Source: a virus
DNA length: 64,000 nucleotides
IMG/VR virus record: IMGVR_UViG_3300010396_000002
Span: 1 to 64,000 of that record
Strand: one strand, 5' to 3'
Below, piece after piece: positions 1-37,739 of the stretch. A model generated the notes under the pieces. That model ran no database searches and had not been told where the DNA came from. It saw only the letters and a list, made by a program, of their open reading frames with translations. The translations under genes were made by a program, and so were the position numbers. Numbering within the stretch: position 1 is the first letter of the stretch; every line of letters begins with the position of its first letter.

Positions 1-464
1 AGCACATAGTGCAGCGACTTCTCGAACTGCACGCCGCGTGCGCCGAGCGCGTAGTTGCGCGGGCCCTGTGGCCACTGCGCGGTGTACCAATACTCGAACC
101 CAGGCGCCTCCGCAGGGTTGAGCTGAGCCGTCGTGAAGCCGTAGAGCTGGGTCACCCCATCCGCGGCGTAGGCCGCCGGCGTGATCCAGCTCACGGTGAT
201 CTCGGGGTCGCCGTTCGTCCCTTCGATGTGCGGTGGCTGGACAGAGCCACCAGGGCCGGGCGGGAAGACGTGCCCGATCACGAGGTCAGGCAGCGGCGCT
301 GCTACACCCGTCCCGATGCGATGCCCCCCGTCTGCCGCGGTCCAGAGCTGGGAGCGAAGCACCAGGGGTACTTGGTGCATCCCCACGAACCCCACGAACC
401 CCCGCAAGATGGCGAGCATGGGGCGGAGGATCGGGGGGAGCAGCCCACGGGGCGGCTCCGCCAT
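1..464 (-). CDS. Partial structural-region protein, 3' end outside window
   Basis: An open frame begins with ATG at 464, preceded by GGAG about ten bases upstream, and runs off the left edge with no stop. The 154 visible residues start MAEPPRGLLPPIL and include a hydrophobic stretch near residues 10-30, then a beta-rich region with many W, Y and P. It lies 14 bases after the glycine-rich gene and is probably co-transcribed with the head genes. I do not recognise the family; a tail or baseplate component is only a guess from position. Confidence 0.7.
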   Translation of the reverse strand, partial: MAEPPRGLLPPILRPMLAILRGFVGFVGMHQVPLVLRSQLWTAADGGHRIGTGVAAPLPDLVIGHVFPPGPGGSVQPPHIEGTNGDPEITVSWITPAAYAADGVTQLYGFTTAQLNPAEAPGFEYWYTAQWPQGPRNYALGARGVQFEKSLHYV

Positions 465-3564: not shown

Positions 3565-4611
3565 TCACGACTCCGAGATGTCGGAGATGATCGCGACCGC
3601 GTTGGGGCGCTTCACGCGGAGCTGCACGTAGGTGTAGACGTTGTACTTCAGGTTGTTGCCGGTCTGGGCGAGCGGCTGGACGACGATGGGCAGCGTGTAC
3701 TGCCGCTTGAGGTCGAGGCCCATGCGCTGCACGTAGGGGTTCGTCGGCACGCTGGCGACGGGGATGAGCGTGCGCGGGAACACGAGCTCGACCTCGGCCG
3801 TGTTGAACATGAAGAGCAGGCCGGACGGCGCACGCGCGGACCGGACGATCGGCATGTTCGACCAGAAGAGGTCGTTGGTGCCCATCGAGAGCACGGTGGG
3901 CATGGTTCCCGGCGTCATCACGCGCTGGATCGGCGTGAAGAGCCCGGCGTACTTGCGATGCACGTTCGCCGTCGTGAGGATCATGTTCGGCGGGTTGCCG
4001 CCGGCGTTGAAGATCGCGACCTCCGCCTGGCGGAGCAGGTCGTCGGTGAGCGGCCGCGCCACGCCCGAGTTGCCGATCACGTTGCCGGCCCACTGCGAGT
4101 AGGTGCCGCGGTCCAGGCCGGCATACGTGCCCGTGGCGAGCGCCGCGCCACCGTCGAAGCCGACGATGTTCGGGTTGCCAGAGATCGAGTCGGTGCCCGT
4201 ACCGACGTACAGGTCGATGGCGATCTGCTTCGTGATCTGAAGCAGCGAGTCACGGAGCTCGACGTCGACGAGCTGGCGGAGCTCGTCGGGCGAGCCGGTG
4301 GCGTCCGCAGCGAGGATCGCTGCCAGGTCGCTGATCTCGGCCGGGCTCCGGTAGTTGCCGAAGTTGAGGACGGCCGAGGTCTTGGTGGTCTTGTTGTACT
4401 CCGAGGTCTGAACGTCGGAGCCCTCGGCGAAGTACGTCACGGCCTTCGTGCCATCGAAGCGCACGCCCCACGCCACGTTCTTGCCCGAGTCGTTGGGCAC
4501 GACCGGGATGGCGCCAAGCTCGATCGCGTCCATGTTGCGCTGATCGGCGAGCAGCGCCGTGTAAATCTGGGACAGCGTTGCGGTGATCGTGGAAAACGTC
4601 TCGAAGGCCAT
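3565..4611 (-). CDS. Major capsid protein (HK97-like fold)
   Basis: 348 residues, preceded by AGGAG eight bases before ATG. The order scaffold then this gene, the size, and typical capsid features support the call: an N-terminal helical start, an acidic spine-helix region around 90-130, a segment with NPNIVGFDGG near 145, a long stretch ending in PNMILTTANVHRKY near 210, and a beta-rich C-terminus. These resemble HK97-fold major capsid proteins of siphoviruses. It assembles with the scaffold encoded just upstream. No N-terminal delta-domain is obvious, consistent with a separate scaffold. Confidence 0.88.
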   Translation of the reverse strand: MAFETFSTITATLSQIYTALLADQRNMDAIELGAIPVVPNDSGKNVAWGVRFDGTKAVTYFAEGSDVQTSEYNKTTKTSAVLNFGNYRSPAEISDLAAILAADATGSPDELRQLVDVELRDSLLQITKQIAIDLYVGTGTDSISGNPNIVGFDGGAALATGTYAGLDRGTYSQWAGNVIGNSGVARPLTDDLLRQAEVAIFNAGGNPPNMILTTANVHRKYAGLFTPIQRVMTPGTMPTVLSMGTNDLFWSNMPIVRSARAPSGLLFMFNTAEVELVFPRTLIPVASVPTNPYVQRMGLDLKRQYTLPIVVQPLAQTGNNLKYNVYTYVQLRVKRPNAVAIISDISES

Positions 4612-4649: not shown

Positions 4650-5543
4650 TCATTCCCCGGGCAGGCCGCCGCCGAGGCGCAACGTTGCGCTGACGGCGTC
4701 CGTCACGTCCTGTTCCCAGGGCCTGGATCCGTTGTTCATGTTGCTGCCGCCGCTCGGACGGCTTCCTCCGCCGCCCGGCTTGCGAGCGGGGATGAAGTGC
4801 TTGGCCTGAGCGGTATCCCGCCACTGCTTCAGGCCCGTAGCGAGATCCTGCTCCTCCTGCTCGTCGCCCTCGCCGGTGACGAAGACCAGGGCCGTGCCCT
4901 TGCCGTTGTCGGAGTAGCGGACGCGCCCTTTGCGCATGAGATGGTCGAAGGCCAGCTCGGCGGAGGTGCCCGCAGGGATCCCGACGTACTCGGTGAGCGC
5001 CTCGAGCGTCCTCTTCTCGAGGGACTGGGCGCGCGACTCCTGCTCCGCCTTCTCGCGGGCCTTCTGCTCCGCGTCGGCGCGCTTCTGGAGGCCGTCGGCC
5101 TTCTTCTTCGCCTCTTCCGCCTCCTTCTTGAGGGCGGCCTGCTCCTGCTCGAACTGCTTCAGGCGCTGCATGAAAGGATGGTTGTCGGGCAGATCCGGGA
5201 TGGTCTCGGCGGCGACCGCTCCCGCGCCGCCTCCCTGCGGTTTGGCCGCGCCGCCACCGCCAGCGATCAGCTCCTTGACGCGCGCCTCGTAGGTCTGGAG
5301 GCTCTCGCCGCTCTTCTTCTCGACGTCGGCGAAGATGCTCTCGCGAAGCTTGGCCTCGCGCTCCTCCATCTCCTTCGCGAAGCTGGTTTTGAGCTCCTTC
5401 GCGCGCCCCGTGAACGCCTTGTTGAGCCAGGCGTTGGCCGCCTCCTCCGACTCGAAGGTGAAGGGCTTCGCCTCTCCGCCTCCGCCTTCCTTGTTGGCCT
5501 TCGCCGCGAGCTCTGCCGGGGTCGGCGTCTTCGTATCTGCCAT
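4650..5543 (-). CDS. Capsid scaffolding protein
   Basis: 297 residues, AGGTG before ATG. The composition is typical of a scaffold: very rich in Glu, Lys, Ala and Gln, with coiled coils at about 55-95 and 125-185, low-complexity glycine linkers at about 95-115 and 255-270, and a short basic C-terminal segment. It sits immediately upstream of the major capsid gene, the standard place for scaffold in tailed phages. No protease motif is visible, so maturation cleavage would need another gene. Confidence 0.85.
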   Translation of the reverse strand: MADTKTPTPAELAAKANKEGGGGEAKPFTFESEEAANAWLNKAFTGRAKELKTSFAKEMEEREAKLRESIFADVEKKSGESLQTYEARVKELIAGGGGAAKPQGGGAGAVAAETIPDLPDNHPFMQRLKQFEQEQAALKKEAEEAKKKADGLQKRADAEQKAREKAEQESRAQSLEKRTLEALTEYVGIPAGTSAELAFDHLMRKGRVRYSDNGKGTALVFVTGEGDEQEEQDLATGLKQWRDTAQAKHFIPARKPGGGGSRPSGGSNMNNGSRPWEQDVTDAVSATLRLGGGLPGE

Positions 5544-5673: not shown

Positions 5674-6264
5674 TCAGTCGTCGCCGCTGGTGCCGCCGCC
5701 CATCAGCTTGTAGACGTGCATCACGACGGCGTATGGCTCGTCGTACTCGTCCCAGTGCGGCATCACCGCTTCCTTGGCTCGCTCCCAGGTGTCCTCGTCG
5801 TCGATGAACGAGGGCGGGTTGTCGTCCCGGTCCGCGTTCTTTGGGTCCTTGTCGACCCATGCCTGCTCGTGCGGGGCGAGCGGAGGGAGCGCGTCCTCGT
5901 CGACCTGTGGCGCTGGCGGCGGGGGAGGGACGCTGCCACCGCTCGAGGACTCGATGCGCGACAGGCCGCCCTTCTGAGCGTTGTGCATGTCCATCCAAGG
6001 GCCTTCCTTGGTGGGCACGTCGAGCACGAAGCCGATCGGGTCGCGGCCGAGCTGCTCATCGGCAAGCACGCGATGATGCCCGTCGGCGACGTGATGCACA
6101 CCATCTGGTGTCTGAACGAAGACGCTCGGCTTGAGCTCGCCGCCTCCTTGCACCGTCCTCACGAAGTGAGCGACACGGTCTGGCTCCGCCGTAGCGGTCC
6201 ACTTCGCACGGCCCGACATGTCGATCTCGTCGAACGGGACGACCTTGGGTCCTCTCCAGCCCAT
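5674..6264 (-). CDS. ParB/sulfiredoxin-like domain protein in head module
   Basis: 196 residues. The N-terminal about 95 residues carry the motif HHVADGHHRVLA (57-68), the signature loop of the ParB/Srx fold. A proline-rich linker follows (112-130). The C-terminal 45 residues contain WERAKEAVMPHW and end AVVMHVYKLMGG, a helical pair seen at the C-termini of phage head-associated proteins. Its ATG overlaps the stop of the Dps-like gene (TGATG), implying coupled translation. The ParB fold may act as a nuclease or nucleotide-binding switch; its role in a head operon is unknown. One of three ParB-like proteins in this window. Confidence 0.8.
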   Translation of the reverse strand: MGWRGPKVVPFDEIDMSGRAKWTATAEPDRVAHFVRTVQGGGELKPSVFVQTPDGVHHVADGHHRVLADEQLGRDPIGFVLDVPTKEGPWMDMHNAQKGGLSRIESSSGGSVPPPPPAPQVDEDALPPLAPHEQAWVDKDPKNADRDDNPPSFIDDEDTWERAKEAVMPHWDEYDEPYAVVMHVYKLMGGGTSGDD

Positions 6265-6944
6265 CAGACCCTCAGCGTCCCGTCGGCGTCGGTGGTGATC
6301 TCGGAGGCGTCGGTCCCGAACCGCGACGCGCGCGCAGCCTGCGAGGCTGCCTGCGCCGCGCCCATCGGATCGCTCCGAACCCAGGCGAGCGCCTCGGACG
6401 GGAAGTCCTCCTCGAGCTGGGCATAGACGCGCTCGGTGACCTCGGAGGATGTCGGAAGGCCAGCGCCGACCTTCCAGGACCAGACCGCGAGCGCCTGCTG
6501 GACGTTCATCACCTCGTTGGCGAGGGTGTGCGCCTTGACGCTCTCGAGCGCCTCGATCGCGTCGCCGCAGAAGCCCATCACCTGGTCGATGCGGTTGCAC
6601 ACCAGGTAGCCGAGCACGGGGAAGGTGAGAATCCCCTTCGGCCACGGCCGGAGACGGGTGCCCTGGGCGAGTTCCTCGACGGAGCCCGAGGACTCGGCCC
6701 CGAGCGCCTCCACCATCTCGGTGACCTTGTCGGCCTGGTCGACGAGGTCGTGGTACACGTCGTCGAGCAGCTTGTGGTTCGCCACCGCGTCGCACGAGCG
6801 CACGTTGTGATGCGCGCGCGTAACGCCGAGCTGGAGCGCTTGGAGATCGATCCCGAGCTGGTCCAGCACCGCGACCGCCTGCCGGCGTGCGTCGTCGCCG
6901 AGGTACGACCAAGGCGATGGGCGGAGAGGGGAGATGATCGGCAT
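6264..6944 (-). CDS. Dps-like ferritin-fold protein
   Basis: 226 residues. Residues 40-85 reproduce the Dps ferroxidase helix pair with exact spacing: H45, H57 (+12), D61 (+4), D72 (+11), E76 (+4), followed by ALG at 80-82. The same pattern in Listeria Dps is H31, H43, D47, D58, E62. A C-terminal helix near 138-165 (ANEVMNVQQALAVWSWKVG) matches the last Dps helix. Dps proteins oxidise and store iron and may coat DNA. It lies 9 bases downstream of portal and upstream of ParB-like, scaffold and capsid genes, an unexpected place. It is longer than usual Dps (about 160-180 residues) because of a C-terminal extension of about 55 residues. Confidence 0.75.
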   Translation of the reverse strand: MPIISPLRPSPWSYLGDDARRQAVAVLDQLGIDLQALQLGVTRAHHNVRSCDAVANHKLLDDVYHDLVDQADKVTEMVEALGAESSGSVEELAQGTRLRPWPKGILTFPVLGYLVCNRIDQVMGFCGDAIEALESVKAHTLANEVMNVQQALAVWSWKVGAGLPTSSEVTERVYAQLEEDFPSEALAWVRSDPMGAAQAASQAARASRFGTDASEITTDADGTLRV

Positions 6945-6953
6945 CGGTCAGGG

Positions 6954-8786
6954 TCAGGCTGCGGCTTGCTTCGCGGGAGGCTGAGGCGGCTGCGGAGGCG
7001 TCTTCGCGCCAGGCGGAGGTGGGGGGGGCGCAGCGGGCGCCTTCGCCTTCCCAGGTGGAACGGGCGGTGCCGGAGGCGTTGGGGGCTTCGGGCCCGCCGG
7101 CGGGGTTGGTGCGCCACCGGGCGGAGGCTGCTGCGCGAGCGCCGCGGCGGCTGCCGTTGCGGCTGCGGCGTCCGCCTCAGCCTTCTCGATCGCGGCCACG
7201 GTCTCTGCGCGGACCTGGGCCTGCGTCTCCGGGGTGAGTCCGGGGAGCAGCTTCAGGTAGGCGCGCATCACGAACTCGACCTTGGCAGTCTTCGAGAAGA
7301 ACGTGATGCCGACGCCAGGGCCCGGCATCGCCGGCAGCGCGCGAATGAGCTCGTCGATGACGGAAGCGCGGTCCTCCTCCGGGTCGAACGAGTCGAGGCC
7401 GTGGACGACCCACTTCACGTCCTCCTCGCGCGCGGTCGAGAGGATCGTGTAGATGCGCCGCGCCGCGTCCCGGAAGATAGCGCCGAGCGCCTTCAGGACC
7501 ACGCAGAAGTCGCCGTTGTCCTCGGCCTTGCTCTCGCCGCTCCGCCCGAGCGCCGTGCTGGTGTTCGAGATCGACGAGGCCATGCGCCCGGAGCACCGGA
7601 AGATTTCGTCGACGAGATCCTTGAGCTGGCCATCGACGACCGTGAAGGCATCGGTCGGCGGACTGATGAACCGGAGGTCATCCCCCGCCACCATGGCCTT
7701 CCAGCCCTTGGACTCGTAGTCCTTCTTCGGGTCGTTGCCACGGGTCGGGTCCTCGGCTTGCTGCGCGGGGATGGGCCCCTGGAAGGCTCCCGTCTGCGGG
7801 CCCAGGAAGGCTACGGGCAGGACGAAGAGCGCCTTGATCTGGCTCGCGAGCAGGCAGGATCGGCGCTGCCAGAGCTCCCGGCACATCGGTCCGATCACGT
7901 TCCCGATCCAGAGCGGCTTCGGAAGCTTGATCTCGACGATTGGGATCTCGGCGAACGTCGTCTCTACGGGCCCCTCCTTGACCGGCACGTCGGCGTCGGC
8001 GTTCGGTGGCCCCTTCTTCTCATCGATCTCGATCTCGTACAGCGACCAGGAGACCTTGCCGGTCTCCGGGTCGCGCACCCAGATGCGATACTCCTCGAAC
8101 GTCTTGGCCGGCTCCTCCGGAGTCGGGTGCCGCACCACGGTGCGCTTGACGATGCACCAGGCGAACTTGCCGACCGAGAAGCGCACCCGGAGCGGCTGGC
8201 CATTGCTGTCGTTGCCGAGGTCCGCCGCCCTCGTGAACTGCGACGCATACTCCCACGAGGTCAGCTCCTCGACGGGCATCTCGTAGACGTACGGCTGGTC
8301 GACGCCAGACGCGTCGGAGTCGGCGCGTGTGCCCTCGTCACCGGCCGGCGGGAAGTCACAGGCGACGAGTGCTTTGCCCTTCACCAGCGCGGTCGTGAAG
8401 GCCTGCTGGAGCACGCCGGGGAACGCGCACCCCTGAAGGTCGGCGTCCTTGGCGAAGCCCTGCCAGACGTCGGGCTCTGGCAGCGTGCCAGGGGTGTTCG
8501 GATCGTCGGCGTCGCCGGCTGGAACCACCGTCAGCGGCTGCGCGAACGCGGCCGCCGAGTACATGTTGACGATCTGCCCGAAGTATCCGGGATAGCTCGC
8601 GATGGCGAGCCGGTCGTTGTACCGCTTGCCGTTCTCACCATCGACCTGCGGTAGATACTCCTTCGCCTTCTCGAGGATCTGGAATCCGCCCTGGTACAGG
8701 TCGTCGCAGACCGACCACGTCGCCGCGTCGTACCCACGATCCGTCTTCGTGGCGGCCGTCGTGGCTGCGAGCAGCTTGTATTTCAT
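6954..8786 (-). CDS. Phage portal protein
   Basis: 610 residues from ATG at 8786 (MKYKLLAATTAATK). The frame is open for another 103 codons upstream, but that part is Arg/Ser-rich shadow-like sequence, so I prefer the internal ATG although its ribosome site is poor. The body has portal-like features: an N-terminal wing helix, a long central region with the helical stem around 350-460, and SRG-type loops. The last 85 residues are almost pure Pro/Ala/Lys, a disordered tail. It heads the Dps-like, ParB-like, scaffold, capsid run, the normal position for portal. TerL is about 27 kb away. Confidence 0.85.
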   Translation of the reverse strand: MKYKLLAATTAATKTDRGYDAATWSVCDDLYQGGFQILEKAKEYLPQVDGENGKRYNDRLAIASYPGYFGQIVNMYSAAAFAQPLTVVPAGDADDPNTPGTLPEPDVWQGFAKDADLQGCAFPGVLQQAFTTALVKGKALVACDFPPAGDEGTRADSDASGVDQPYVYEMPVEELTSWEYASQFTRAADLGNDSNGQPLRVRFSVGKFAWCIVKRTVVRHPTPEEPAKTFEEYRIWVRDPETGKVSWSLYEIEIDEKKGPPNADADVPVKEGPVETTFAEIPIVEIKLPKPLWIGNVIGPMCRELWQRRSCLLASQIKALFVLPVAFLGPQTGAFQGPIPAQQAEDPTRGNDPKKDYESKGWKAMVAGDDLRFISPPTDAFTVVDGQLKDLVDEIFRCSGRMASSISNTSTALGRSGESKAEDNGDFCVVLKALGAIFRDAARRIYTILSTAREEDVKWVVHGLDSFDPEEDRASVIDELIRALPAMPGPGVGITFFSKTAKVEFVMRAYLKLLPGLTPETQAQVRAETVAAIEKAEADAAAATAAAAALAQQPPPGGAPTPPAGPKPPTPPAPPVPPGKAKAPAAPPPPPPGAKTPPQPPQPPAKQAAA

Positions 8787-9093: not shown

Positions 9094-9372
9094 ATGGCCA
9101 GGCCGATCGGGTTCCGCGAAGGGGTTCAAGCCGTTCTCGATGCGAGGGACATGACGCGCGCCGATCTCGCCAAGCGCATGGGCGTCTCCGCTGCCCGCGT
9201 GACCCAAGCCCTCGCCCCCGATGCGAACCCAACGATCGCGACCATGGCAGCAATCTCCTCGGCGCTGGATCTCGAGGTGCACGTGCTCCTCCTCCGGCGT
9301 CGCGGGTCATGCCTGCTCGGTTCGTGGGACCCGAGCCCCGCTCGCGAGCCAGCGCTCGGCCTTGCCGCGTGA
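9094..9372 (+). CDS. Small XRE/Cro-type helix-turn-helix regulator
   Basis: 92 residues; ATG follows GAGGAG by six bases. Residues 8-66 form a compact Cro/C1-type HTH: ADLAKRMGVSAARVTQAL is the turn-helix part, with helix 3 near SAARVTQALA. The last 20 residues are basic and probably disordered. It overlaps the nuclease gene by GTGA, suggesting a two-gene transcript. It could be a repressor of the divergent region, or an antitoxin-like partner of the following nuclease; the sequence does not decide this. Confidence 0.8.
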   Translation: MARPIGFREGVQAVLDARDMTRADLAKRMGVSAARVTQALAPDANPTIATMAAISSALDLEVHVLLLRRRGSCLLGSWDPSPAREPALGLAA

Positions 9373-10034
9373 GCGAGGACGAGCTCAGACCGCCCATCAT
9401 CGCCTGGCTCCATGAGGCCGGGTTCGACCCAGGCGTGTTCCAGGAGGTCGAGATCCGCGGCGACATCGCCGACATGGTAGCGGTCGCTGGCCCACGGCTC
9501 GCCGTCGTCGAACTGAAGCTTCAGCTCTCGTTCGAGCTGCTCCACCAAGCACGACGTTGGCGCGGGCTCGCGCACCAGGTCTTCGTCGGCGTCCCCTATG
9601 CGCGACCGAGTGAGGGACGGCGCATGGCCTTCGACGTGTTCGACACCTACGGGATCGGGGTGCTCGAGGTCACCGAGGGGCGCTGGAGTGGGCAGACCGA
9701 CGTCGAGGAGCGGGTACGGCCTGCGTTCAATCGGAACGCGCGCACCGACATGATCCGCCGCAAGCTCTGCGAGGAGCAGAAGACGTTCGCCGCAGCAGGC
9801 TCACCGACTGGTCGGCGCTGGTCCCCCTTCAAGGCGACCTGCAAGCGGGTCGCCGACTTCGTGCGGGAGCATCCCGGGGCCACGCCGCGAGAGATGATCG
9901 AGGAGCTGGGCAAGCTCCACTACGCCAGCGACGCCGGCGCGCGGTCCAGGCTCCTCGCGTTGATCCGCCGCGGCGTCGTCGACGGGGTGCGCCTCGAGCA
10001 GGACGGCCGCCGCTGGCGGCTCTACCCGGTCTAG
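9369..10034 (+). CDS. PD-(D/E)xK nuclease-like protein with C-terminal winged helix
   Basis: 221 residues from GTG at 9369, coupled to the HTH gene by GTGA. Residues 28-52 read GDIADMVAVA then LAVVELKL, the D...ExK core of PD-(D/E)xK nucleases (D32 or D35, E48, K50), with a following helix LHQARRWRGLAHQVFVGVP typical of the fold. Residues about 150-221 look like a winged-helix DNA-binding domain. Such proteins resolve or cleave DNA, or act in restriction; the substrate here is unknown. Its stop shares bases (CTAG) with the stop of the convergent gene. Confidence 0.7.
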   Translation: MSEDELRPPIIAWLHEAGFDPGVFQEVEIRGDIADMVAVAGPRLAVVELKLQLSFELLHQARRWRGLAHQVFVGVPYARPSEGRRMAFDVFDTYGIGVLEVTEGRWSGQTDVEERVRPAFNRNARTDMIRRKLCEEQKTFAAAGSPTGRRWSPFKATCKRVADFVREHPGATPREMIEELGKLHYASDAGARSRLLALIRRGVVDGVRLEQDGRRWRLYPV

Positions 10035-34926: not shown

Positions 34927-35739
34927 CTAAGGCGTCGGCTGGCGCGGGGTCAAGCCAGCGGCGCGTCTCTCGTGCGCTGCCCGGAGCGAGGCGCTTTTCT
35001 TCGTTGCTGTCGCAGCGCGCTCCTCTTGGGTCTTTGCAGCCATCGTCGCCACGGCCTTCGCTCGGCCCTTGAGCGAGATCGCGCGGCGCTCCTCCGGCGT
35101 CTGCGCCGCCTTGCGCGCCTTCGCAGCTTCGGACATCCGACGCCGTGTCTCGTCGCCGATCGAACCTGGCCCGTCGCCCCCCTTGGTCCCGTTGTAGCCA
35201 AGCGAAGGATCATCAGAACCGAAGTGCTCGACCCACCACGACTCGGCATCGTTCGCCGCGCCCTGACCCTCAACCTCTTCGAGCACTTCGGGAGCAAAGG
35301 CGTTGGCACCGTGCTTCGCCATTGCAAGGTGAAGCCGAAACGTCGGGCGCGGCTGCCGTGCGTGTGACAGGTGCTCCAACCATCTTGCGCCGAGCTTGCG
35401 CCGCGTGATGCCGACGTAGCGCTTCTGGTCCGGCGCATGCGTTACGCAGTAGACGATGAAGCGTCCCTGCGCGCTCGCCTGCATCTTGTCTCGCCGGGCG
35501 TCCCTCGTCGCCGTCCTAGTCTCATTGTGGCAACTTGGGCATGCGGCGACATGCCCTTCTTTTGATACCTTGCGCAACGCGCACAAGCTTCGCACGAGTT
35601 CGACACCGCAGACGCAGCGACAGAGCCAGAAGCGTCCGCTCGCACGCGCGCCAGCGGGTCGCTCCGCTGGCCGGAGCGCGGTCAGCTTGCCGAAGACATC
35701 GCCCGTAACGTCGTGAGCACGACGGGTCCTGTGATCCAC
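34927..35739 (-). CDS. GIY-YIG homing endonuclease-like protein
   Basis: 270 residues. The GIY-YIG core spans about 92-180: FIVYCVT (94-100) and YVGIT (108-112), Arg in LGARWLEHLSHAR, and a late SWWVEHFG with the catalytic Glu region. The first 75 residues carry Cys residues (C40, C42, C44, C67, C70) of a zinc module common in homing enzymes, and the C-terminal 90 residues are Lys/Arg/Ala-rich, a likely DNA-binding arm. A GTGATACGCT -10-like element precedes it. It lies 12 bases from the end of terL, a frequent homing neighbourhood. Confidence 0.8.
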   Translation of the reverse strand: MDHRTRRAHDVTGDVFGKLTALRPAERPAGARASGRFWLCRCVCGVELVRSLCALRKVSKEGHVAACPSCHNETRTATRDARRDKMQASAQGRFIVYCVTHAPDQKRYVGITRRKLGARWLEHLSHARQPRPTFRLHLAMAKHGANAFAPEVLEEVEGQGAANDAESWWVEHFGSDDPSLGYNGTKGGDGPGSIGDETRRRMSEAAKARKAAQTPEERRAISLKGRAKAVATMAAKTQEERAATATKKSASLRAAHERRAAGLTPRQPTP

Positions 35740-35750
35740 GCCTCAGCGTA

Positions 35751-37739
35751 TCACGCGAGCGGCGCTGGCGATCGGTAGGCTTGCGGCGGCATCGGCCGGC
35801 TCAGGATGGCCCATGCAATCGCTGCCGTGATGATCAGGTCGTCGTTGGCGCCGCTCTTCGCTCGGGCCTTCCCCCAGGCATCGACCACGAAGCTCCGGCA
35901 CTCCTCGAGCACCATGAGATCGGGCGTGCTCCACGCGCCCTGCCGATGATCCTGTTCGAGCAACGACAGCGCGCCCTCGCGACTCGGCCCCGAGGTGAGC
36001 CAGCCGTAGTGGCCGTCATGGTCCGTCCAGATGTGCGGGTAGCCGCACTGCCCGGCGCGGCCCCATGTCACGATCTTGGCGGCGAGTTCGGCCGACATGA
36101 TCGCTGGACCGAGATCCTTCGACGGCAGCACGCCGGCGATCATGCGTAGGTCGTGCGGGGCCGCTGAGATCGGGAAGCCGACCTTGGTGGCCGCCAGCGC
36201 GCCAGCTTCGTCGAGCAGAACGCCCGACAGCATGTCCGGCCGTACCAGCTCGTCGATGGCCGAGCAGCCCATGTTGTTGCGCTCGAGAGCGATGATCGCC
36301 TGGTTGAAGCGCAGTGCGAGCGCGACGGCGAGCCGGCCAAGCTCCTTCGGCTTCACCTGCCCATGCAGCGTAGCGACATGGCGCGGCTGCTCCCCGGCCT
36401 TCGTGACGCGCGTCCAGACCTGGAGCGCGGCGGGGTCGCCCCCTTCGCCGCCCGACGTGTCGCCTACCACGATGTAGAGCTGCTTCGGGTTGACGTCCTC
36501 GAAGATGCGCAAGCCGTACTGGGCCCCGCCACGGACCATCCGTAGCGACTTGTATGGGCGCTTCACGTCGTTCCATGCCTTCTCTTTCCTGGTCGCCTCC
36601 GCGATGAGGTGCTCGGTGATGTCCTTGTCGAGGTAGCACTCCCCCGACGCGATGAAGCAGGTGATCGGGTCGGTTGGCAGCTCCTTGTCGACGCGCATCA
36701 GCGTCTTCGCGCGCACCTGTGCCCGGAACCACTTTAGGTACTCCTGGACGACGCGGACGCGGTCTGGCTCGTCGGCGAACTTCTCGTTGAGCAGCGTCCA
36801 GCACTGCTCCTCGCGCACGCGACGCGCCTCGATCGACTGCTGGTCCGGCGTGCACGTCTCGCCTTCCTCGAGCGTGAGCCGGCGTCCAGGCAGCTCGAAC
36901 CAGGGGAAGAAGTGAGGGGTGAACTCGTCGCCCTCCGGCGATGTCGCGCGCTTCCACAGGCGGTGGAAGTATGGCCCGCCGCGAGGGTCGTTCTCGCTCG
37001 TCGAGACACCGCTCGGCGTCGTCTCGATCGTGACCTCGGTCGCCGGCGCTGGCGCCGTCACGGAGTTGAGCACGGAGTCCATCGTTGCAGCCGCGACCTC
37101 CCAGAACGCGATCTCGGTGCAGTGCAAGCGGTGCGTCGTGCCGCCACGGCCCTTCTTGTCGGCGGTCTGCTCGCTGGCGCCGGCCTCGAGCACCTCCAGG
37201 ATGCCGCCTCCGGCGATGGTAGCGAGTTGCCAGCGCCCCTTCGTGCTCGCGCGTGCTTGAAGCGGCACGCTAAGGCCCTTGCGCTGGAGGCTCTCCAGCA
37301 TGAGCTGCACCACGCGCGCGAAGTCGTGCTGCATCTCATGGTCGGACGACGTCTGGCAGACGACGCGGACCGAGACGCCCGGATGCACCAGCCAGAACCA
37401 GAGGTCCCGCGCGAGCTCGACCGTCGACATGCCGAGCTTCCTGGCCTTCAGCACGACGTCTCGCCCGGTGCGCGCTCGGTTGAACCGACGCTGTAGGTCC
37501 GTGAGCACCAGTGGTACCGGGCGCCCAGGGCGCTCGCCGTTAGGCCCGGCCTCCGCTGCGGGGACCTCGAGCTGCTCGCAGAACGCCTCGAAGTCGTCGC
37601 TGTACGTCGCCCGCAGGTGAGCCAGCGTCGAGAGCGGCTTCGTGTCGGCGACGGCGTTCGCGGCGAGCGCGTCGAGCCAGACGGACGACTCGGCTGGCAG
37701 GACCCGGACGACGGAAGCGGCTGCGGCGCGGCGGGGCAT
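35751..37739 (-). CDS. terL: Terminase large subunit
   Basis: 662 residues. ATPase: Walker A-like KARKLGMST (98-106) and Walker B ending LHCTE (E209). Nuclease: D427 in IVVGDTSGG, E486 in ALERNNMG, and a late acidic pair in ANDDLIITAAIAW near 645, the RNase H-like metal-binding set. It packages DNA into the prohead through the portal. It is encoded about 27 kb from portal rather than beside it, and no small terminase was recognised nearby. Confidence 0.9.
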   Translation of the reverse strand: MPRRAAAASVVRVLPAESSVWLDALAANAVADTKPLSTLAHLRATYSDDFEAFCEQLEVPAAEAGPNGERPGRPVPLVLTDLQRRFNRARTGRDVVLKARKLGMSTVELARDLWFWLVHPGVSVRVVCQTSSDHEMQHDFARVVQLMLESLQRKGLSVPLQARASTKGRWQLATIAGGGILEVLEAGASEQTADKKGRGGTTHRLHCTEIAFWEVAAATMDSVLNSVTAPAPATEVTIETTPSGVSTSENDPRGGPYFHRLWKRATSPEGDEFTPHFFPWFELPGRRLTLEEGETCTPDQQSIEARRVREEQCWTLLNEKFADEPDRVRVVQEYLKWFRAQVRAKTLMRVDKELPTDPITCFIASGECYLDKDITEHLIAEATRKEKAWNDVKRPYKSLRMVRGGAQYGLRIFEDVNPKQLYIVVGDTSGGEGGDPAALQVWTRVTKAGEQPRHVATLHGQVKPKELGRLAVALALRFNQAIIALERNNMGCSAIDELVRPDMLSGVLLDEAGALAATKVGFPISAAPHDLRMIAGVLPSKDLGPAIMSAELAAKIVTWGRAGQCGYPHIWTDHDGHYGWLTSGPSREGALSLLEQDHRQGAWSTPDLMVLEECRSFVVDAWGKARAKSGANDDLIITAAIAWAILSRPMPPQAYRSPAPLA

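What the first reader, a model, noticed from the sequence alone, without database searches (positions are those of the whole stretch)
6264..6944. Dps-like protein inside the phage head operon
All five ferroxidase-centre residues are present with exact Dps spacing (H45, H57, D61, D72, E76), yet the gene sits between portal and scaffold genes. It could load iron, protect packaged DNA, or have been recruited as a structural head protein. A C-terminal extension of about 55 residues is not seen in ordinary Dps.
Basis: partly seen in the sequence, partly recalled or inferred. Interest (0 to 1): 0.75.

Follow-up and report, generated by a model that had tools for sequence, protein, structure and literature searches.

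The report
Phage Dps mini-ferritin in head operon
A large uncultured tailed phage carries, right after its portal gene, a gene for a genuine Dps-type iron-oxidising cage protein with an unusual tail, and other uncultured phages turn out to place Dps next to, or fused to, capsid-building genes several times over, which suggests that some phages protect their DNA from iron damage while heads are built and possibly inside them.

Summary
ORF 6264-6944(-) encodes a 226-aa Dps homologue (PDB Dps E 8e-8; NCBIfam PRK09448 8.5e-13) with all five ferroxidase ligands in exact spacing. It follows the portal gene and precedes a weakly ParB-like gene, the scaffold and the capsid gene. AlphaFold2 gives a confident Dps fold, including the short BC helix. 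All 5 ligands are kept, against 11 of 29 other conserved columns, so selection seems to have kept the iron site. The last ~64 residues form an acidic, weakly helical extension without detected homologues. Two relatives that reach past the portal carry MuF there and no Dps, so the position is not conserved in this lineage.

A few lineages place them in head modules: directly after two unrelated portals, between TerS and TerL in T4-like phages (19 loci), and fused to a capsid maturation protease. I found no report of this. In the named phages examined, Dps lies elsewhere, mostly near nucleotide-metabolism genes.

Best reading: a working mini-ferritin made late with head proteins, limiting iron/peroxide damage to phage DNA. 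Whether it enters the virion is undetermined (about one in three). New variant of a known kind.

The parts
6264..6944 (-). Dps-like gene, 226 aa
6462..6896 (-). Dps four-helix core, residues 17-161 (helices 17-46, 53-80, BC helix 89-95, 108-135, 139-161)
   Evidence: AlphaFold2 pLDDT about 91-98 over nearly all of this stretch; Foldseek to Dps crystal structures, TMt 0.80-0.92
6717..6812 (-). ferroxidase ligands: H45 6810-6812, H57 6774-6776, D61 6762-6764, D72 6729-6731, E76 6717-6719
6267..6458 (-). acidic C-terminal extension, residues 163-226, no detected homologue
6954..8786 (-). portal gene, directly upstream (9 bases between portal stop and Dps start)
   Evidence: phrog_145 6e-25; junction sequence
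5674..6264 (-). weakly ParB-like gene overlapping the Dps stop codon (TGATG)
   Evidence: phrog_1033 E 0.004; sequence
4650..5543 (-). head scaffolding protein gene
   Evidence: phrog_206 1e-8
3565..4611 (-). major capsid protein gene
   Evidence: SU10_MCP 1.9e-8, NF033394 7e-36

Best explanation
The gene encodes a functional Dps-type mini-ferritin. SHOWN by computation: Dps sequence homology, Dps fold with the BC helix, all five ligands in register, location directly after the portal in the head cluster. INFERRED: it assembles as a 12-subunit cage with iron centres at subunit interfaces, is made late together with portal, scaffold and capsid, and oxidises Fe(II) with peroxide or oxygen and stores it as mineral, so that Fenton damage to phage DNA is limited while genomes are being packaged. 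It would act mainly as a soluble cage in the infected cell. DNA binding of the classic kind is unlikely to be central, since there is no lysine-rich tail.
For: Homology to Dps. AlphaFold2 model with pLDDT about 91-98 through the core and the short BC helix; the best PDB matches listed are all Dps structures, rmsd 1.2-2.4. Against 37 bacterial Dps, 5/5 ligand columns are kept versus 11/29 other columns conserved at 85% or more (Fisher p 0.016). Intact frame, closely spaced with portal and downstream gene. Tail and baseplate genes and a 123-base direct terminal repeat point to an intact, probably complete virus genome. Acidic protein, pI 4.7, with no lysine in residues 1-16 or 163-226.
Against: No biochemical or expression data. 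The Trp next to the first ligand, invariant in the 37 bacterial Dps compared, is His46 here. Nearest relatives do without the gene. The structure model was built with an alignment of Dps proteins, so it is not independent of the homology. Late expression is inferred from gene order only.
Confidence: 0.52

Rival explanations
1. Capsid cargo: the cage or its subunits are taken into the prohead (through the C-terminal extension, the portal or the scaffold) and sit with the packaged DNA, protecting it from iron and peroxide in the virion or on entry. It remains catalytic.
For: Position directly after the portal, where the two relatives that reach past the portal carry the minor head protein MuF/SPP1 gp7. 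Dps directly follows two further unrelated portals, L118 and L222. A capsid maturation protease-Dps fusion after portal and MuF in L104, and viral structure-library entries named prohead protease that match the fold. Acidic C-terminal extension not seen in the other Dps compared.
Against: L118 has a DNA methyltransferase in the same portal-capsid gap, so such gaps also take non-structural passengers. L118 and L222 Dps lack the extension. Head adjacency in 4-5 of about 21-27 Dps lineages is not clearly above a rough chance estimate. No virion proteomics.
Confidence: 0.33
2. Structural recruitment: the Dps fold has become a non-catalytic head or assembly protein.
For: Location, long branch (5.2 changes per site), extra C-terminal segment.
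Against: All five iron ligands are kept while other conserved positions drift. Relatives build heads without it.
Confidence: 0.07
3. Neutral passenger: a host dps gene captured by chance, without function for the phage.
For: Absent from the relatives checked.
Against: Very diverged from the bacterial Dps in the tree (best 28% over 145 columns) yet intact and with ligands kept, which points to long residence under selection.
Confidence: 0.08

Closest known systems
Bacterial Dps, e.g. Deinococcus radiodurans Dps2 (PDB 2c2j, 6tgt) and Agrobacterium tumefaciens Dps (1o9r)
   Same: Fold, ligand pattern, short BC helix
   Different: About 23-28% identity; Trp beside the first ligand replaced by His46; acidic extension of about 64 residues; encoded in a phage head cluster
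Phage-encoded Dps of named phages (Grimontviridae-type podoviruses, Streptomyces Stanwilliamsviridae, Lactobacillus, Synechococcus; PHROG 3636)
   Same: Stand-alone Dps-family gene in a tailed phage
   Different: In the named phages examined it lies outside head modules, mostly near nucleotide-metabolism or replication genes, and is shorter; the window protein does not group with them in the tree, though its placement is unsure
Uncultured-virus Dps in head modules: L118 and L222 (portal then dps), T4-like TerS-dps-TerL (19 loci), L104 capsid protease-Dps fusion
   Same: Dps with the same ligand spacing inside or fused to the head/packaging module
   Different: Portals with no BLAST similarity to this one, and no long C-terminal extension
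DpsL (Dps-like with bacterioferritin-type centre, P. aeruginosa PA4880, PMC11150526)
   Same: Dps-type subunit fold
   Different: DpsL iron ligands lie within each subunit, bacterioferritin type; the window protein has the Dps ligand pattern
Encapsulin ferritin-like cargo (Myxococcus EncB/EncC, PMC9321382)
   Same: Ferritin-superfamily iron enzyme associated with an HK97-fold shell (analogy only)
   Different: Host-encoded compartment and different cargo proteins; no targeting peptide was tested here

Membership tests
Dps (mini-ferritin) | Sequence homology to Dps | tested here: met
   PDB Dps E 8e-8; NCBIfam PRK09448 8.5e-13, but under that model's equivalog cut-off; PHROG 3636 2e-7
Dps (mini-ferritin) | Five ligands of the inter-subunit ferroxidase centre in H-x11-H-x3-D-x10-D-x3-E spacing | tested here: met
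   H45, H57, D61, D72, E76
Dps (mini-ferritin) | Four-helix bundle with a short helix in the B-C loop (feature named in PMC11150526) | tested here: met
   Helices and BC helix 89-95; Foldseek top matches are Dps
Dps (mini-ferritin) | 12-subunit cage, iron oxidation and mineral core | not testable with these tools
   Needs expression and assay
Dps (mini-ferritin) | DNA binding through a lysine-rich N- or C-terminal tail (not universal in the family) | tested here: not met
   No lysine in residues 1-16 or 163-226; C-terminal extension pI 4.2, charge -6
DpsL (bacterioferritin-type centre) | Intra-subunit bacterioferritin-type ligands with ExxH motifs (motif from general knowledge) | tested here: not met
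   No ExxH motif in the translation, by reading
Virion or head-internal protein | Present in purified virions | not testable with these tools
   No proteomics for this uncultured virus
Virion or head-internal protein | Conserved at the same head position in related phages | tested here: not met
   L002 (portal 46%, capsid 71% in alignments) and L090 (portal 45%) have MuF after the portal; a Dps profile finds nothing in L002, L003, L004, L090, L091 or L092. Only two relatives reach past the portal, so this is a small sample

The most novel reading that the evidence does not exclude
Several unrelated tailed phages carry a catalytic Dps mini-ferritin as a head-module protein that is packaged in or on the virion (by position after the portal, by a special C-terminal extension, or by fusion to the capsid protease), giving the packaged genome its own iron and peroxide defence.
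Probability: 0.28. Interest if true: 0.82.

Novelty: new variant of a known kind. Interest (0 to 1): 0.52.

Why it matters
Phage Dps genes have been explained as helping the host cell tolerate oxidative stress during infection (PMC8008677, PMC6669764). Placement in head modules in several unrelated phages, and fusion to a capsid maturation protease, raises a different and testable idea: that some phages defend the DNA being packaged, or the virion itself, against Fenton chemistry. It also gives concrete loci for virion proteomics.

Tried and rejected
Close relatives of the Dps gene in IMG/VR by sequence: none; of the portal as a single query: none. tblastn of the protein in named phages: none. 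Size-matched genes in the related record MW202476 (229 and 196 aa between portal and scaffold) looked like orthologues but are not homologous. A first tblastn of L002 was void because the locus file was not found; it was replaced by a Dps profile search. A MuF-like hit at 35715 (+) was rejected as a short match on the strand opposite the terminase. PF04233 (MuF) and PF03237 (terminase) found nothing in this genome; the terminase was found as window 35751-37739 by PHROGs. Similarity of the C-terminal extension to other proteins of this phage: none credible. Structure of the ParB-like neighbour alone failed, pLDDT 40. A viral-collection Dps with 62% identity to a bacterial one (L097) lies beside an integrase gene and resembles Methylobacterium Dps, so it is probably host DNA flanking a prophage. 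In the phage 7-7-1 paper the hits for 'Dps' mean decoration proteins. Tree placement is unresolved because of the long branch.

Full report
OBSERVATION. The window is the first 64 kb of a 155,559-base IMG/VR virus record. Its ends carry a 123-base direct repeat, which suggests a complete genome. ORF 6264-6944 (-) gives a 226-aa protein. phmmer against PDB sequences finds Dps proteins first, E 8e-8, aligned in register through the ferroxidase region. NCBIfam Dps model PRK09448 scores E 8.5e-13, below its equivalog cut-off, and PHROG 3636 (named DNA binding protein; it also matches the Dps half of L104) E 2e-7. Pfam Ferritin is below threshold (E 0.11), which shows how diverged the sequence is.

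CONTEXT. On the minus strand the order is portal (6954-8786), Dps, a weakly ParB-like gene (5674-6264, TGATG overlap), scaffold (4650-5543), major capsid (3565-4611). Tail sheath, tape measure, baseplate hub and wedge genes lie on the same strand at the other end of the record, consistent with one late cluster in a contractile-tailed phage if the genome is circular or permuted. The terminase (35751-37739) is about 27 kb from the portal.

FOLD. AlphaFold2 with an alignment of 37 bacterial Dps gives pLDDT about 91-98 through nearly the whole core, four long helices and the short BC helix 89-95. Foldseek against PDB returns Dps structures throughout the list shown, TMt 0.80-0.92. The alignment was made of Dps proteins, so this supports but does not independently prove the homology. 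The last 64 residues are weakly helical, pLDDT about 53-79, charge -6.

IS THE IRON SITE UNDER SELECTION? Of 34 columns conserved at 85% or more in the bacterial set, the phage protein keeps 5 of 5 ligand positions and 11 of 29 others (one-sided Fisher p 0.016). Caveat: the bacterial set was collected with motifs that include residues around the first two ligands, so conservation there is partly by construction; D72 and E76 are free of this. The Trp after the first ligand, present in all 37, is His46 here.

RELATED PHAGES. Relatives by portal or capsid are few: L002 (capsid 71%, portal 46%), L090 and L091 (portal 44-45%); L092 is the same contig as L002. In L002 and L090 the gene after the portal is MuF/SPP1 gp7-like; L091 ends just after the portal. 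A Dps profile finds nothing in L002, L090, L091, L092 or in the more distant L003 and L004. So the head position is not conserved in this lineage, on the evidence of two genomes that reach it.

SURVEY. All were Dps by HMM. Three head-module arrangements appear. (a) Portal directly followed by dps: L118, with lambda-family portal E 1e-88, then dps, a DNA methyltransferase and a protease-capsid protein; and L222, with a portal at E 1e-6. Stop and start codons overlap in both. (b) TerS directly before dps in 19 T4-like loci, with TerL directly after it in 16 and the locus ending there in the other 3. These loci are related to each other and count as one or two origins. (c) L104: portal, MuF, then one 401-aa protein whose N-terminal part matches actinophage capsid maturation proteases (E down to 6e-10) and whose C-terminal part is Dps. 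The viral structure library also lists three proteins named prohead protease and one named ParB/Sulfiredoxin with this fold; I could not read their sequences. The portals of the window, L118, L222, L104 and L150 show no BLAST similarity to each other, so these are separate arrangements.

HOW STRONG IS THE PATTERN? Clustering the 120 proteins gives 21-27 lineages at 40-50% identity, of which 4-5 have a head-module member. My rough estimate, not computed with a genome model, is that chance placement could give about two, so enrichment is suggestive only. L118 also shows that the portal-capsid gap accepts a non-structural gene. The protease fusion is the strongest hint of a virion role, because that protease normally works inside the prohead (established knowledge), but it concerns a different phage. 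In the named phages examined, dps lies outside head modules: among nucleotide-metabolism or replication genes in 7-11, Privateer, Aeromonas 4_4572 and Bas86; near ThyX or glycosyltransferase genes in the Streptomyces phages; near thymidine kinase in Lb338-1; near a porin gene in S-SRM01; beside sulfate adenylyltransferase in S-EIVl.

LITERATURE. Phage Dps genes are known and were read as protection of the host against oxidative stress (PMC8008677, PMC6669764). Searches for Dps with virion, capsid or prohead protease found no report of a head-module or virion Dps. The library lacks most subscription journals, so absence is not proof.

VERDICT. A real Dps family member, probably catalytic, encoded with the head proteins. 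Mechanism: most likely a soluble late-infection iron/peroxide sink protecting phage DNA (0.52); capsid cargo (0.33); neutral passenger (0.08); structural recruitment (0.07). Novelty: new variant of a known kind.

Noticed in passing
L150, L103, L128 and 16 further loci: T4-like uncultured phages with dps directly after TerS (gp16), and before TerL (gp17) wherever the locus reaches that far.
   Followed up: partly
L104:809-2014: Capsid maturation protease-Dps fusion, 401 aa, after portal and MuF genes.
   Followed up: partly
L146:9030-11648: 872-aa protein with an N-terminal Dps domain and a long lysine-rich, repetitive remainder of unknown function.
   Followed up: no
L118:3945-4631: DNA methyltransferase gene between dps and the protease-capsid gene.
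   Followed up: no
window 34927-35739 (-): GIY-YIG endonuclease gene next to the terminase gene (PF01541, 2.7e-5), possibly a homing endonuclease.
   Followed up: no
window 35751-37739 (-): Diverged terminase large subunit about 27 kb from the portal; missed by Pfam.
   Followed up: no
window 9369-10034 (+): Gene on the opposite strand just upstream of the portal, strong match to PHROG 12193 of unknown function (E 4e-26).
   Followed up: no
record ends: window 1-123 and the last 123 bases of the 155,559-base record (L009): 123-base direct terminal repeat, suggesting a complete genome.
   Followed up: no
L002:5945-6733 and L090:13905-14456: Repetitive protein built of SSLTVLASTNKSLASAADSSLTV-type repeats downstream of the portal in relatives.
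   Followed up: no
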